Assembly (NCBI RefSeq): GCF_002261265.1
Contig: NZ_NEVK01000005.1
Location: 1 to 32,127 of the forward strand
Source of the DNA: Bordetella genomosp. 7
Lineage (GTDB): Bacteria > Pseudomonadota > Gammaproteobacteria > Burkholderiales > Burkholderiaceae_B
DNA: 32,127 nucleotides
Reading direction: 5' to 3'
Shown here piece by piece: positions 8,844 through 20,523 of the stretch (positions are counted from its first letter, which is position 1; each line of letters begins with the position of its first letter). The notes under the pieces are model-generated. The model ran no database searches. It saw nothing but the letters and a program-made list of their open reading frames with translations, and had not been told where the DNA came from. Made by a program: the position numbers and the translations under genes.

Positions 8844-9980
8844 ATGGCTGCTGTTATCAACACCAATTACCTGTCTCTGGTTGCGCAAAACAACCTGACG
8901 AAGTCTCAATCGGCCCTGGGTTCGGCCATCGAGCGCCTGTCCTCGGGCCTGCGCATCAACAGCGCCAAGGACGACGCTGCCGGCCTGGCAATCGCCAACC
9001 GCTTCACGTCCAACGTCCGCGGCCTGACGCAAGCGGCCCGCAACGCCAACGACGGCATTTCGATCGCTCAAACGACCGAAGGCGCCACCGCCGAAATCAC
9101 GACCCACCTGCAGCGCATCCGCGAACTGTCGGTGCAAGCCGCCAACGGCACGTACTCGTCGACCGACCTGGCCTCGATGCAAGACGAAGTCGAGCAACGC
9201 CTGGCCGACATCGACCGCATCAGCCAGCAAACCGATTTCAACGGCGTGAAGGTCCTGTCCGCCGATCGCAGCCTGACGCTGCAAGTCGGCGCCCGCGACG
9301 GCGAAACCATCACCGTCGACCTGAAAGAAATCAGCTCCAGCACGCTGAGCCTGGCCGACTTCAGCATCGCCGGCCCGACCGGCACCGCTTCGGCCTACAC
9401 GGGCGGCACCGCAGCCGGCGCCGTGACGCTGAAATCCACCGACGGCTCGGGCGATCCCGCCGCGGTCAGCGCCGCTGCCGTCACGCTGAAGGACGTGAGC
9501 GACGCCAGCACGCAATCTGGCGCCACGGGCGCTCTGGACCTGGTCCAGGACGAGCGCGGCAACTGGTACGTGACCGAAGGCACGGGCGCGGCGCAGGTTT
9601 ACTACGCTGCCAGCGTGAGCGTAACGGGCGGCACCGGCACCGGCGCATCCGCCGCCCCCACCGCCACGGTGACCTACGATTCGACCAAGGCCCTGGGCAC
9701 CGCCAGCGACGATCCGATGGCCTCGCTGGACACGGCCCTGAACACGGTCGACACTCTGCGCAGCAACCTGGGCGCGGTGCAGAACCGCCTGGAGTCCACG
9801 GTGTCGAACCTGAACAACATCGTGAACAACCTGTCGGCTTCGCGCTCGCGCATCGAAGATGCCGACTACGCGGTCGAAGTGTCCAACATGACGCGTGCCC
9901 AGATCCTGCAACAGGCAGGCACCTCGGTGCTGGCCCAGGCCAACCAAGTGCCGCAGACGGTTCTGTCGCTGCTGCGTTAA
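8844..9980 (+). CDS. fliC: Flagellin FliC/FlaA
   Basis: Flagellin is the filament subunit, exported by the flagellar type III system. The 378-residue product starts at ATG 8844 with GGGAG six bases upstream. The N-terminal D0/D1 region is typical (MAAVINTNYLSLVAQNNL, LSSGLRINSAKDDAAGLAI). The C-terminal D1/D0 region is equally conserved (ASRSRIEDADYAVEVSNM, then a VLAQANQVPQTVLSLLR end). Between about residues 175 and 295 lies a variable surface domain rich in Gly, Ala, Ser and Thr, with several threonine- and serine-dense stretches that are plausible O-glycosylation sites. A glycosyltransferase gene follows immediately, separated by a strong terminator, which suggests post-translational modification of this protein. 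B. bronchiseptica FlaA is similar in size. Confidence 0.97.
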   Translation: MAAVINTNYLSLVAQNNLTKSQSALGSAIERLSSGLRINSAKDDAAGLAIANRFTSNVRGLTQAARNANDGISIAQTTEGATAEITTHLQRIRELSVQAANGTYSSTDLASMQDEVEQRLADIDRISQQTDFNGVKVLSADRSLTLQVGARDGETITVDLKEISSSTLSLADFSIAGPTGTASAYTGGTAAGAVTLKSTDGSGDPAAVSAAAVTLKDVSDASTQSGATGALDLVQDERGNWYVTEGTGAAQVYYAASVSVTGGTGTGASAAPTATVTYDSTKALGTASDDPMASLDTALNTVDTLRSNLGAVQNRLESTVSNLNNIVNNLSASRSRIEDADYAVEVSNMTRAQILQQAGTSVLAQANQVPQTVLSLLR

Positions 9981-10039
9981 TCGCGAAAGCGGGCCGGTCC
10001 GCCAGGCCGGCCTGCCGGATACTCCCGTATCCCCTGGAA

Positions 10040-10066
10040 AGCCCCTTTTCGAAGGGGCTTTTTTTT
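10040..10066 (+). terminator. Rho-independent terminator after fliC
   Basis: An 8-bp stem AGCCCCTT/AAGGGGCT with a TTCG tetraloop is followed by a run of seven T. It lies 60 bases after the flagellin stop, and it insulates the highly expressed fliC from the glycosyltransferase gene downstream. Confidence 0.93.
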
Positions 10067-10165
10067 CGCGCCCCAAATAGACGGTTTTTTTGTTCGCTCT
10101 CCGGCATATTGCCGGCATCGGCCCGGCGGTACCCTGACGCCCTACTTCATTGTGCAAGCCGGCCC

Positions 10166-18286: not shown

Positions 18287-18510
18287 GATCGGATAGCCAC
18301 CAACCCCGCGGCTGGCACGATTAGAGATTGGCGCACGCAGCGCCTGCAGTATCGCAACGCAGTCTAGCAGCGCCCCGCCGCCACCAAAACGTCAAACTGG
18401 CGGCCATTTGCCGCTTGATCTTCCTGCTGGCGCTGGGCCGAACGCCGCATACTTGCGTGCAACGCAGCTTCAGGGCGTCCCGCTCATCGATCCCCGGGGC
18501 GTTTGTCCGC
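18287..18510. promoter_or_regulatory. Divergent vioA/rmlA promoter region
   Basis: This 224-base gap without a gene must drive both the leftward aminotransferase and the rightward rmlAB. I found no convincing -35/-10 pair, operator or sigma-28 site. An apparent GG/GC pair near CTGGCGGCCATTTGC has the wrong spacing for sigma-54. Confidence 0.45.
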
Positions 18511-19404
18511 ATGTCTATCCAACGCAAAGCCATCATTCTTGCCGGCGGCAACGGTACGCGTCTGCACCCCATGACGTGCTGTGCGAGCAAACAGCTATTG
18601 CCGGTATACGACAAGCCGATGGTGTATTACCCCTTGTCAGTACTGATGCTTGCGGGCATACGCGACATTCTGATTATCTCGACCCCGCAGGATCTTCCGC
18701 GTTTCGAATCGCTGCTGGGCAGCGGTTCCGACATCGGACTCAACCTTTCCTACAAATGCCAGACGGCACCCAGGGGGCTGGCCGATGCATTTATCGTAGG
18801 CGCTGATTTCATCGGCGACTCTGACGTCGCGATGATCCTCGGCGACAACGTGTTCTACGGCATGGGGCTATCCACCATGCTGCGCAAAGCCAACGCCCGC
18901 ACCGAGGGCGCCACGGTGTTCAGCTACCAGGTGCTGGATGCGCGCCCCTTCGGCGTCATTGAAGTGGACGCGCACGGCAAGGCCGTCAGTATCGAGGAAA
19001 AGCCCGCCACGCCGCGCTCCAACCATGCGGTAACGGGCTTGTACTTCTACGACAATCAGGTGGTGGACATTGCCCGGCGGCTCGCGCCATCCCCTCGGGG
19101 CGAGCTGGAGATCACCGACATCAACCGCCAGTACATGCGAATGGGTATGCTGCACGTGCAGCCGCTGGGACGCGGCTTCGCGTGGCTGGACACCGGCACG
19201 CCGGACGGCTTGCTCGATGCGGCGAACTTCGTCGCCACGGTGGAGCGCCGCCAAGGGATGAAGATTGCGTGCATTGAAGAGATTGCCTGGCGCCAGGGTT
19301 GGCTGGACCAGGACGGCCTGCTTGCGCAAAGCGACCGGTATGGAAAAAGCTCCTACGGGGCGTATCTGAAACGCATAGCCCAGGATTCCCTGGCGCACGC
19401 CTGA
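18511..19404 (+). CDS. rmlA: Glucose-1-phosphate thymidylyltransferase RmlA
   Basis: RmlA converts glucose-1-phosphate and dTTP to dTDP-glucose. The 297-residue product starts at ATG 18511, chosen because the nucleotide-binding motif KAIILAGGNGTRLHPMT follows at once; upstream in-frame sequence shows no similarity. CCASKQLLPVYDKPMVYYPL, ILGDNVFYG and FAWLDTGTPDGLLDA are all standard. The gene lies 15 bases before rmlB. No rmlC or rmlD is present, so here dTDP-glucose is probably channelled to the VioA-type branch instead of rhamnose, unless a second rml locus exists elsewhere. Confidence 0.97.
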   Translation: MSIQRKAIILAGGNGTRLHPMTCCASKQLLPVYDKPMVYYPLSVLMLAGIRDILIISTPQDLPRFESLLGSGSDIGLNLSYKCQTAPRGLADAFIVGADFIGDSDVAMILGDNVFYGMGLSTMLRKANARTEGATVFSYQVLDARPFGVIEVDAHGKAVSIEEKPATPRSNHAVTGLYFYDNQVVDIARRLAPSPRGELEITDINRQYMRMGMLHVQPLGRGFAWLDTGTPDGLLDAANFVATVERRQGMKIACIEEIAWRQGWLDQDGLLAQSDRYGKSSYGAYLKRIAQDSLAHA

Positions 19405-19419
19405 CCATCCCCCTTTTCC

Positions 19420-20523
19420 ATGCCAGATCCCGATCGCACCGAAGGCTTGCCCGGCCCTTTGCTCGTTACCGGCGGCGCCGGCTTTATTGGGTCTGCCGTT
19501 ATACGACATGCTGTCGACCACACTCTGTATGACGTAGTCAATGTCGACAAGCTCACCTATGCCGGTAACTTGCGAGCGCTATCATGCGTTGCAGGCCGGC
19601 CCGGGCGGTATGTGCTCGAACAGGAAGACATCTGCAACGCCGACGCATTGCGGCGCATCTTCAAGCATTACCGGCCGTGCGCAGTCATGCACCTGGCTGC
19701 CGAATCCCATGTAGACCGATCCATCAGTGGGCCTGCGGCATTCATACAGACCAATATCGTCGGCACCTACATGTTGCTGGAGGCGGCCCGCGAATACTGG
19801 TCGCAGCTATCCCCGTGCGCACGGCAACGCTTTCGCTTTCACCACGTTTCCACGGACGAGGTCTACGGCGACCTGGATGACAGCGGCACGCTGTTCACAG
19901 AAACCACGCCTTACGCCCCCAGCTCGCCCTATTCGGCCAGCAAAGCGGCATCGGACCACCTGGTGCGCGCCTGGCACCGCACTTATGGATTACCGGTTGT
20001 ACTGAGCAACTGCAGCAACAACTACGGCCCGTACCAGCATCCGGAAAAGCTTATTCCGCTGATAATCACCCGTGCGCTGGCCGGACAGCCGTTGCCCATA
20101 TATGGGCAAGGACAGCAGATCCGCGACTGGCTCTATGTCGAAGATCACGCGCGCGCCCTGTTCACCGTGCTCGAACATGGCGCGACCGGCGCCACGTATA
20201 ACATCGGCGGCCACAATGAGATGCGCAACATCGACGTGGTTCACCTGCTGTGCGGCCTACTGGAGGAAATGGCGCCCGAGAAGCCTCGCGGGGTTGCACG
20301 CTACACCGACCTGATCACCTTCATCGCCGATCGCCCGGGCCACGATTTCCGCTACGCGATCGACGCCGGCAAGATCCAGCGCGAACTGGGCTGGACGCCT
20401 GCCGAGACCTTCGTCTCGGGCCTGCGCCGCACCGTCGCCTGGTTTCTGGCGCATCGGCACGAATGGGCAGGCGGGACGCTTGCAAGTACCGAAAGCCTGC
20501 CGGCGGCAGCCCGGGCGGCGTGA
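19420..20523 (+). CDS. rmlB: dTDP-glucose 4,6-dehydratase RmlB
   Basis: RmlB is a short-chain dehydrogenase-type enzyme forming dTDP-4-keto-6-deoxyglucose, the substrate of the VioA-type aminotransferase. The 367-residue product has the NAD motif TGGAGFIGSAV, VDKLTYAGNL, HLAAESHVDRSI, the catalytic region STDEVYGDL and Tyr-Lys in SPYSASKAASDHLVRAW, then NCSNNYGPYQHPEKLIPL. The first 12 residues are extra compared with many RmlB proteins, but no better start is evident. It is co-transcribed with rmlA and ends convergent with lpdA. Confidence 0.97.
   Translation: MPDPDRTEGLPGPLLVTGGAGFIGSAVIRHAVDHTLYDVVNVDKLTYAGNLRALSCVAGRPGRYVLEQEDICNADALRRIFKHYRPCAVMHLAAESHVDRSISGPAAFIQTNIVGTYMLLEAAREYWSQLSPCARQRFRFHHVSTDEVYGDLDDSGTLFTETTPYAPSSPYSASKAASDHLVRAWHRTYGLPVVLSNCSNNYGPYQHPEKLIPLIITRALAGQPLPIYGQGQQIRDWLYVEDHARALFTVLEHGATGATYNIGGHNEMRNIDVVHLLCGLLEEMAPEKPRGVARYTDLITFIADRPGHDFRYAIDAGKIQRELGWTPAETFVSGLRRTVAWFLAHRHEWAGGTLASTESLPAAARAA

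What the first reader, a model, noticed from the sequence alone, without database searches (positions are those of the whole stretch)
8844..20523. Candidate flagellin-modification island making a decorated viosamine-type sugar
Immediately after fliC lie a giant glycosyltransferase, a WbqC-family protein, a formyltransferase, an unknown protein, a methyltransferase, a VioA-type aminotransferase, rmlA and rmlB. RmlA, RmlB and VioA suffice for dTDP-viosamine, and no rmlC/rmlD is present. Acylated viosamine on flagellin is known in Pseudomonas syringae and Burkholderia cenocepacia, but this gene set lacks a VioB-type acyltransferase and has formyl-, WbqC- and methyl-transfer candidates instead. 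It could therefore make a different glycan, such as an N-formyl or N-(formyl-aminoacyl) methylated viosamine.
Basis: partly seen in the sequence, partly recalled or inferred. Interest (0 to 1): 0.82.

Follow-up and report, generated by a model that had tools for sequence, protein, structure and literature searches.

The report
Flagellin sugar-decoration gene cassette
Right behind its flagellin gene this bacterium carries a swapped-in set of genes that probably builds an unusual decorated amino sugar and attaches it to the flagellum; this type of locus is known, but this mix of decorating enzymes looks new and predicts a specific sugar that can be checked by mass.

Summary
Behind fliC lie a TPR-GT41-GT56 transferase, wbqC, a formyltransferase, an orphan, a methyltransferase, vioA (minus strand), rmlA and rmlB. 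In the genus this is a variable slot between fliC and the pyruvate dehydrogenase genes. DNA homology to one relative stops inside the transferase gene (about 12,085) and resumes after rmlB (20,544), so the second transferase domain was exchanged together with the sugar genes. VioA groups with E. coli O7 VioA, apart from WecE and FdtB. A related transferase in another genus sits beside vioA and a beta-hydroxyacyl gene set; here WbqC and a formyltransferase stand in its place. E. coli O121, whose Qui4N carries N-acetylglycyl, has rmlB-rmlA-aminotransferase-WbqC-GNAT. The formyltransferase is PurN-like: catalytic Asn/His/Asp kept, GAR-phosphate residues lost. Predicted sugar: 4-(N-formylglycyl)amido-4,6-dideoxyglucose, probably O-methylated (residue mass 230.090 or 244.106). 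One correction: rmlD and rmlC exist elsewhere in the genome. New variant of a known kind; no chemistry has been shown.

The parts
8699..8726 (+). sigma-28 (FliA)-like promoter of fliC
   Evidence: only match to TAAA-N14-16-GCCGA on either strand of the window; the consensus is recalled
8844..9980 (+). fliC, flagellin (378 aa), the likely acceptor
   Evidence: PF00669 E 2.5e-43, PF00700 E 5.7e-31; 91% aa identity to G103
10043..10065 (+). terminator-like hairpin with T run after fliC
10226..14074 (+). transferase, about 1282 aa (start uncertain; ATG also at 10166): TPR about 10283-10807, GT41 ending about 11983, GT56/WecF-like about 13157-13858
   Evidence: 28% to K-12 WecF, E 1e-11; DNA homology to G103 ends near 12085
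12086..20543 (.). exchanged cassette: stretch without DNA homology to relative G103
   Evidence: blastn of 8600-21000 matches only 8732-12085 (81%), 20544-21000 (84%) and a short piece at 8600-8688, plus one 26-base match at 9990-10015
14079..14828 (+). wbqC, proposed aminoacyl (glycyl) addition to the 4-amino group
   Evidence: PF08889 E 2e-62; 39% to E. coli O121 WbqC; AF2 model pLDDT 94.6
14828..15508 (+). PurN-like formyltransferase (226 aa); proposed N-formylation of the glycyl amine
   Evidence: PF00551; triad N104/H106/D142 kept, GAR-phosphate residues lost
15481..16356 (+). orphan protein (291 aa); C-terminal stretch like a 457-aa Acetoanaerobium protein; role unknown
   Evidence: no Pfam match; tblastn E 2e-5
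16366..17148 (+). SAM-dependent methyltransferase, proposed O-methylation of the sugar
   Evidence: weak Methyltransf_9/CmoB-like matches
17174..18286 (-). vioA, dTDP-4-keto-6-deoxyglucose 4-aminotransferase
   Evidence: PF01041; 55% to E. coli O7 VioA; best NCBIfam model DesI, below its cut-off; only close copy in the genome
18511..19404 (+). rmlA, glucose-1-phosphate thymidylyltransferase
   Evidence: TIGR01207, 462 bits against cut-off 361; only copy at E<=1e-20 in the genome
19420..20523 (+). rmlB, dTDP-glucose 4,6-dehydratase
   Evidence: TIGR01181, 475 bits against cut-off 365; second copy at C5, 53%

Best explanation
This is an exchanged flagellin-glycosylation cassette. RmlA and RmlB make dTDP-4-keto-6-deoxyglucose and VioA aminates it to dTDP-viosamine (dTDP-Qui4N). 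WbqC then attaches an amino acid, most likely glycine, to the 4-amino group, and the PurN-like enzyme formylates the free glycyl amine, the same chemistry PurN performs on glycinamide ribotide. The methyltransferase adds one O-methyl group. The two-domain transferase first puts a core sugar on flagellin Ser/Thr with its TPR-GT41 half. Its GT56 half, related to the Fuc4NAc transferase WecF, then adds the decorated 4-amino sugar. Gene identities, the slot and the domain swap are shown here by sequence. Flagellin as target, the order of steps, glycine, the formyl position, the methyl position and the core sugar are inferred. My step-wise estimates: flagellin-modifying island 0.85; dTDP-viosamine made 0.85; formyl carried by an aminoacyl group rather than directly on C4-N 0.5; that amino acid being glycine, given this, 0.75. 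The confidence below is for the core claim: a flagellin cassette whose viosamine carries a formylated aminoacyl group.
For: Slot and exchange: in 5 of 7 relatives whose fliA locus was read, fliA-fliC is followed by lpd and aceE, with nothing (G053), one unrelated gene (G171) or a TPR-GT41 transferase as the one large gene (G156, G103, G141; G141 also has a 158-aa open frame) in between; breakpoints at about 12,085 and 20,544; GC3 of cassette genes 0.70-0.78 against 0.77-0.86 in flanking genes. Module replacement: three genomes of another genus (7 of 200 matched, self and three weaker short proteins included) carry 1652-1672 aa TPR-GT41-GT56 homologues next to fliC; one (L012) has vioA between fliA and fliC and KASIII, KASIII, SDR and a hexapeptide acyltransferase after it. 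VioA: 15 VioA-type rows split from WecE and FdtB with 100/99 support in a 17-row tree (the two outgroup branches are very long). WbqC: an aminotransferase that matches the window VioA (E<=1e-4) lies within 6.5 kb in 59 of 79 scored WbqC loci, and one farther out in 4 of 79; it is directly upstream within 150 bp in 34 of 79. E. coli O121 cluster rmlB-rmlA-aminotransferase-WbqC-GNAT with Qui4N reported to carry N-acetylglycyl (PMC3210612 passage); O7 has VioA-VioB and no WbqC in the stretch read. Formyltransferase: closest solved structures are GAR transformylases (E 3e-18), solved sugar N-formyltransferases reach only about 1e-7; triad kept and phosphate site lost; a Rhodocyclales MAG has the same overlapping wbqC-FT pair, 59% and 58%, with a 62% VioA elsewhere in its genome.
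Against: No chemistry or expression evidence exists here. WbqC was called functionally uncharacterized in a 2017 paper (PMC5532660 passage), and I saw no later assignment. The glycyl role rests on elimination in one O-antigen cluster. The gene after WbqC is often a hexapeptide acyltransferase (20 of 76), which could itself act on C4-N, so WbqC may do something else. Of the 59 loci with a nearby aminotransferase only 7 have one at least 55% identical to the window VioA (11 have none above 40%), so many may make other sugars. A formyltransferase like the window's lies within 6.5 kb of WbqC in only 3 of 79 loci. The AF2 model of WbqC found no significant structural relative (0 hits at E<=0.001). 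The 291-aa protein has no role in this scheme. vioA is on the opposite strand from the rest.
Confidence: 0.42

Rival explanations
1. The formyltransferase acts directly on C4-N of dTDP-viosamine (as sugar N-formyltransferases such as VioF do, recalled), giving Qui4NFo; WbqC modifies something else.
For: Formyl-Qui4N is a known natural residue (PMC3210612 passage); the formyl-transfer triad is intact; sugar N-formyltransferases do appear among PDB matches.
Against: The protein is closer to GAR transformylases than to the solved sugar N-formyltransferases that matched (E 3e-18 against about 1e-7). It pairs with WbqC, overlapping it, in two distant lineages, which suggests that they act in sequence.
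Confidence: 0.28
2. The cassette serves an O-antigen or other surface polysaccharide and only happens to lie beside fliC.
For: Aminotransferase-WbqC pairs occur in polysaccharide clusters, for example E. coli O121 and O123/O186. The genome's only rmlA (E<=1e-20) is in the cassette, so it may also feed dTDP-rhamnose for other glycans.
Against: No flippase or polymerase family turned up among the window proteins scanned. The transferase is a TPR-GT41 protein, found next to fliC in 3 of the 5 syntenic relatives and in three genomes of another genus, and its second domain was exchanged with the sugar genes.
Confidence: 0.1
3. WbqC adds an amino acid other than glycine, or the PurN-like enzyme has another acceptor, so the acyl group is a different one.
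For: WbqC also occurs in E. coli O123/O186 with a different neighbour set (324-aa protein, GNAT, MaoC). Other Qui4N acyl groups include 3-hydroxybutyryl-alanyl (PMC3210612 passage).
Against: The PurN-like acceptor logic (a glycine amide) and the O121 precedent both point to glycine.
Confidence: 0.15
4. The cassette is decayed or silent.
For: vioA lies opposite to the rest; no sigma-70-like promoter was found between 8600 and 20700 (0 found, 3.5 expected in shuffles); lower GC3.
Against: All eight reading frames are free of stops, with catalytic residues of the FT intact and strong family scores for most. wbqC and FT overlap as in a working operon.
Confidence: 0.05

Closest known systems
Pseudomonas syringae pv. 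tabaci viosamine island (vioA, vioM, vioT, vioS, vioB, vioR, acp) with fgt1/fgt2 (PMC3927599, passages seen)
   Same: vioA; a large transferase for modified viosamine (VioT, 1173 aa); a methyltransferase; shown by mutants to modify flagellin
   Different: there the acyl group is 3-hydroxybutyryl and the island has vioS, vioB, vioR and acp; none of these is among the island proteins here, which have wbqC and a PurN-like formyltransferase instead; that island lies between a glutamine synthetase and a histidine kinase gene, not beside fliC
Unnamed locus G077/L012 (another genus of the same family)
   Same: fliA, vioA, fliC and a homologous TPR-GT41-GT56 transferase (47% and 41%)
   Different: has KASIII x2, SDR, hexapeptide acyltransferase and a Rieske protein; its transferase has an extra GT2 domain
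E. coli O121 O-antigen cluster (L128)
   Same: rmlB, rmlA, VioA-like aminotransferase (57%), WbqC (39%) in a row; Qui4N with N-acetylglycyl reported (PMC3210612 passage)
   Different: GNAT acetyltransferase in place of the PurN-like formyltransferase; serves LPS, not flagellin
Enterobacterial flagellin glycosylation islands (PMC4875605, passages seen)
   Same: variable islands with aminotransferases, methyltransferases and, in nine strains, formyltransferases
   Different: the words WbqC, VioA and viosamine are not in that text
Dickeya zeae WH1 insertion between fliA and fliC (PMC9650423, one passage seen)
   Same: WbqC, DegT-type aminotransferase and methyltransferase beside fliC
   Different: no formyltransferase named in that passage; no functional study in it

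Membership tests
fliC-linked flagellin glycosylation island | variable gene block beside fliC between conserved flanks | tested here: met
   conserved flanks in 5 of 7 relatives read, with differing content
fliC-linked flagellin glycosylation island | flagellin carries the glycan | not testable with these tools
   needs mass spectrometry
P. syringae-type modified-viosamine system | VioA aminotransferase | tested here: met
   55% to E. coli O7 VioA; grouped with it against WecE and FdtB with 100/99 support, outgroup branches long
P. syringae-type modified-viosamine system | VioB-type acyltransferase with KASIII and reductase | tested here: not met
   none among island proteins
P. syringae-type modified-viosamine system | rhamnose core | tested here: inconclusive
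   rmlB-rmlD-rmlC at C5, rmlA only in the island; donor of GT41 unknown
WbqC family (PF08889) | profile score above cut-off | tested here: met
   211 bits against 21.3
PurN (GAR transformylase) | score above the PurN equivalog cut-off | tested here: not met
   68.2 bits against 150.1
PurN (GAR transformylase) | catalytic Asn/His/Asp | tested here: met
   N104, H106, D142 align with E. coli N106, H108, D144 (residue roles recalled)
PurN (GAR transformylase) | GAR-phosphate residues | tested here: not met
   E. coli N10, S12, N13, R64, Q170, E173 all replaced (residue roles recalled)
Sugar N-formyltransferases (QdtF/WlaRD/VioF type) | closest sequence relatives are sugar formyltransferases | tested here: not met
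   best is 4xd1/4xcz at E 1.5e-7 against GAR transformylase 3e-18
WecF (GT56) | GT56 domain | tested here: met
   PF07429, 61.8 bits against 25
WecF (GT56) | WecF equivalog score | tested here: not met
   best WecF-type model 94 bits against 457
Class I aminoacyl-tRNA-synthetase-like (HUP) ligases, for WbqC | significant structural match | tested here: inconclusive
   the ten best hits are TyrRS, but E 0.02-0.07 and TM 0.31-0.36; profile comparison no better than a control

The most novel reading that the evidence does not exclude
WbqC is an ATP-dependent aminoacyl ligase with a class-I-synthetase-like (HUP) fold, using a Tyr-Ile/Leu-Gly-Tyr version of the HIGH motif to activate glycine and join it to the amine of dTDP-viosamine. 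A PurN copy recruited from purine synthesis then formylates that glycyl amine. The result is a flagellin capped with 4-(N-formylglycyl)amido-4,6-dideoxyglucose, a residue for which the one search I made on flagellin gave no paper. The donor-specific GT56 half of the transferase is exchanged together with the donor pathway, so the slot swaps flagellin caps as one unit.
Probability: 0.2. Interest if true: 0.75.

Novelty: new variant of a known kind. Interest (0 to 1): 0.55.

Why it matters
Flagellin glycans vary widely, and gene content alone rarely names the sugar. Here comparison gives an exact structure and masses to look for, and it proposes a function for WbqC, a widespread family for which the searches here turned up no assigned activity. 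It also shows how a flagellin cap may be exchanged: the second transferase domain moves together with the genes that make its donor. If the formyltransferase is PurN-derived and acts on a glycyl amide, it is a neat case of a central purine enzyme being reused in glycan decoration.

Tried and rejected
Plain WecE-type (Fuc4N) product: rejected, VioA is 32% identical to K-12 WecE but 55% to O7 VioA.

3-amino sugar (FdtB/QdtB route): rejected, 28% to the O71 FdtB-type enzyme, and no ketoisomerase among the island proteins scanned.

Ordinary PurN: rejected, below the PurN cut-off and phosphate site lost. The genome has a separate PurN-like hit at C4:662741. In 360 class genomes 244 have a match at E<=1e-12, but after the window's own (about 1e-142) the best is 7e-23; I take these for ordinary PurN and did not check them one by one.

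Orphan protein 15481-16356: I suspected a ParB/sulfiredoxin-like domain by eye. Pfam gave nothing. No relative was found at E<=1e-3 in 200 family genomes or 398 phylum genomes apart from itself, nor by the pattern scans of genome contigs and viral contigs. The only relative seen is a 457-aa Acetoanaerobium protein, whose best Pfam match is not significant. A short hit in L080 was judged chance. Role left open.

WbqC fold: AF2 model good but Foldseek not significant. hhalign against PanC and TyrS gave E 0.031 and 0.036, but one of ten controls (GstA) gave 0.037, so no support. A Pfam scan of 44 WbqC proteins shows no second family in more than 4 of 44; the best was 8.6e-4, in one protein.

Literature: WbqC with flagellin or viosamine, Qui4N with formyl and glycyl, and flagellin with acetyl- or formylglycyl. 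I saw listings, and WbqC passages in three papers: PMC9650423, PMC5532660, which calls WbqC functionally uncharacterized, and PMC10434189, where it is listed beside a DegT aminotransferase. None of the three assigns it a function. One search listed 30 of 44 papers. The library lacks most subscription papers.

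
Full report
What is there. The window is a whole contig (C3) of a 4.13 Mb genome in 8 contigs. The left part holds a chemoreceptor gene, cheA, motB, motA and flhC on the minus strand and fliA on the plus strand; then come fliC and the island, and the right part holds lpd-aceF-aceE on the minus strand, a histidine kinase, a response regulator, folD and an insertion sequence. 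The transferase reads as TPR, GT41 and GT56 domains. The formyltransferase, WbqC, VioA, RmlA and RmlB all have clear family matches. The methyltransferase is only weakly placed, and the 291-aa protein at 15481-16356 is an orphan. vioA is on the minus strand, convergent with the methyltransferase and divergent from rmlA.

A variable slot behind fliC. The genus group held nine genomes, and fliA was found in eight, the window's own included. I read the fliA locus in the seven relatives. In five of them fliC is followed by lpd and aceE as here. One slot is empty (G053), one holds a phosphoenolpyruvate-mutase-like gene (G171) and three hold a TPR-GT41 transferase as the one large gene (G156, G103, G141; in G141 there is also a 158-aa open frame). 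Of the other two, G123 has different genes after fliC and G015 is a divergent locus. Against the empty site, homology stops at 9982 and resumes at 20528.

A domain exchange. Against G103, DNA homology runs from 8732 to 12085 (81%), stops, and resumes at 20544 (84%). In protein terms the TPR-GT41 half is up to 92% identical in 50-residue windows, falls to 40-58% between residues 600 and 900, and to about 20% beyond. The GT56 half thus seems to have arrived together with wbqC-FT-orphan-MT-vioA-rmlA-rmlB. Cassette genes and the GT C-terminal half have lower GC3 (0.70-0.78) than the flanking genes (0.77-0.86).

The same transferase with a different acyl set. Searching 200 family genomes with the GT56-containing end gave seven with a match: the window's own, three genomes of another genus with 1652-1672 aa homologues right behind fliC, and three with weaker, short proteins. 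In G077 a vioA (65% identical) lies between fliA and fliC, and two KASIII-like proteins, an SDR, a hexapeptide acyltransferase and a Rieske protein follow the transferase. That is the kind of gene set that goes with the 3-hydroxybutyryl group of P. syringae modified viosamine (PMC3927599, passages). In the window WbqC and a formyltransferase stand in its place. The other two genomes of that genus show no vioA in the stretch read. The G077 and G120 transferases also have a GT2 domain that the window protein lacks, so a shorter chain is likely here.

VioA. Its best NCBIfam score is DesI (E 3e-88, below that model's cut-off; WecE-type models 9e-51 and 1e-38), and its best solved structure is 2po3 (I recall that entry as DesI). 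A tree of 17 hand-chosen rows separates 15 VioA-type enzymes, among them E. coli O7 VioA, from WecE and FdtB with 100/99 support, though the two outgroup branches are very long. Inside the clade little is resolved. The genome has no other close copy; the next aminotransferase is 34% identical.

WbqC. The 80 closest of 576 WbqC relatives were fetched and 79 scored. An aminotransferase matching the window VioA lies within 6.5 kb in 59 of 79, and one farther out in 4 of 79; it is directly upstream within 150 bp in 34 of 79. Only 7 of those 59 loci have one at least 55% identical to the window VioA. Flagellin-linked examples occur in a Janthinobacterium, a deltaproteobacterial MAG and a Burkholderia multivorans, and in print in Dickeya zeae WH1 (PMC9650423, one passage). 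The E. coli O121 cluster reads rmlB-rmlA-aminotransferase-WbqC-GNAT. A review states that Qui4N is known with N-acetylglycyl and cites the O121 structure (PMC3210612, passage). O7 has VioA and VioB; VioB N-acetylates the amine (PMC4732683, passage). By elimination, WbqC is the best candidate for adding glycine and GNAT for acetylating it. Against this, the gene after WbqC is a hexapeptide acyltransferase in 20 of 76 cases and a GNAT in 8, so the elimination may not hold in general.

Formyltransferase. It is closer to GAR transformylases than to the solved sugar N-formyltransferases that matched but far below the PurN cut-off. Aligned with E. coli PurN, N104, H106 and D142 match the catalytic triad, while the residues I recall as GAR-phosphate contacts are replaced. 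A Rhodocyclales MAG has the same wbqC-FT pair, overlapping, at 59% and 58% identity. Its VioA (62%) sits elsewhere, in what looks like an exopolysaccharide cluster. In two further loci (a Thermoanaerobaculia MAG and a Hymenobacter) a formyltransferase is near vioA and wbqC. PurN formylates the amine of a glycine amide; a glycyl-viosamine is a glycine amide too. That is why I prefer N-formylglycyl over plain N-formyl.

rmlB, rmlD and rmlC are at C5. The only rmlA found at E<=1e-20 is the island's, so the genome can probably make dTDP-rhamnose with the help of the island's rmlA, and rhamnose may be the core sugar. Five of nine genomes in the genus show no such rmlA at all, which I cannot explain.

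WbqC fold. The AF2 model is confident (mean pLDDT 94.6). Foldseek found nothing at E<=0.001; the ten best hits are tyrosyl-tRNA synthetases at E 0.02 to 0.07 with TM 0.31-0.36. A Pro-Tyr-Ile/Leu-Gly-Tyr motif sits after the first strand, where class I enzymes have HIGH (recalled). Profile comparison with PanC and TyrS was no better than a control. This is an idea, not a result.

Verdict. The island is real, exchanged as a cassette, and most likely decorates flagellin with an acylated viosamine. The exact acyl group is a prediction. The kind of locus is known; the enzyme combination and the joint exchange of transferase half and donor pathway make it a new variant.

Noticed in passing
G000:C5 (L026:8388-10899): rmlB-rmlD-rmlC without rmlA; the genome's only rmlA at E<=1e-20 is in the flagellar island, and 5 of 9 genus genomes show no rmlA at that threshold.
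   Followed up: partly
L037:9992-11381: Stand-alone overlapping wbqC-formyltransferase pair in a Rhodocyclales MAG, with VioA elsewhere in the genome.
   Followed up: partly
15481-16356: Orphan 291-aa protein; its C-terminal part resembles a 457-aa Acetoanaerobium protein; a shared GxHRxxAxAALGY stretch looks ParB/sulfiredoxin-like by eye.
   Followed up: partly
30755-32097: Insertion sequence (HTH and rve integrase genes) at the right end of the contig.
   Followed up: no
L031:8441-15211: Cupriavidus metallidurans CH34: TPR-GT41 protein, VioA, WbqC, then a PhyH-type oxygenase and a methyltransferase; possibly another glycoprotein cassette.
   Followed up: partly
L113:9014-10693: Burkholderia multivorans WbqC lies in a 559-aa open frame beside a TPR-GT41 gene and near two flagellin genes; it may be a fusion or just a long open frame.
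   Followed up: no
G000:C4:129578-130885 (L162:9579-10886): Second flagellin-like gene (37% to FliC); no relative of the island's sugar genes showed up in the 20 kb around it.
   Followed up: yes
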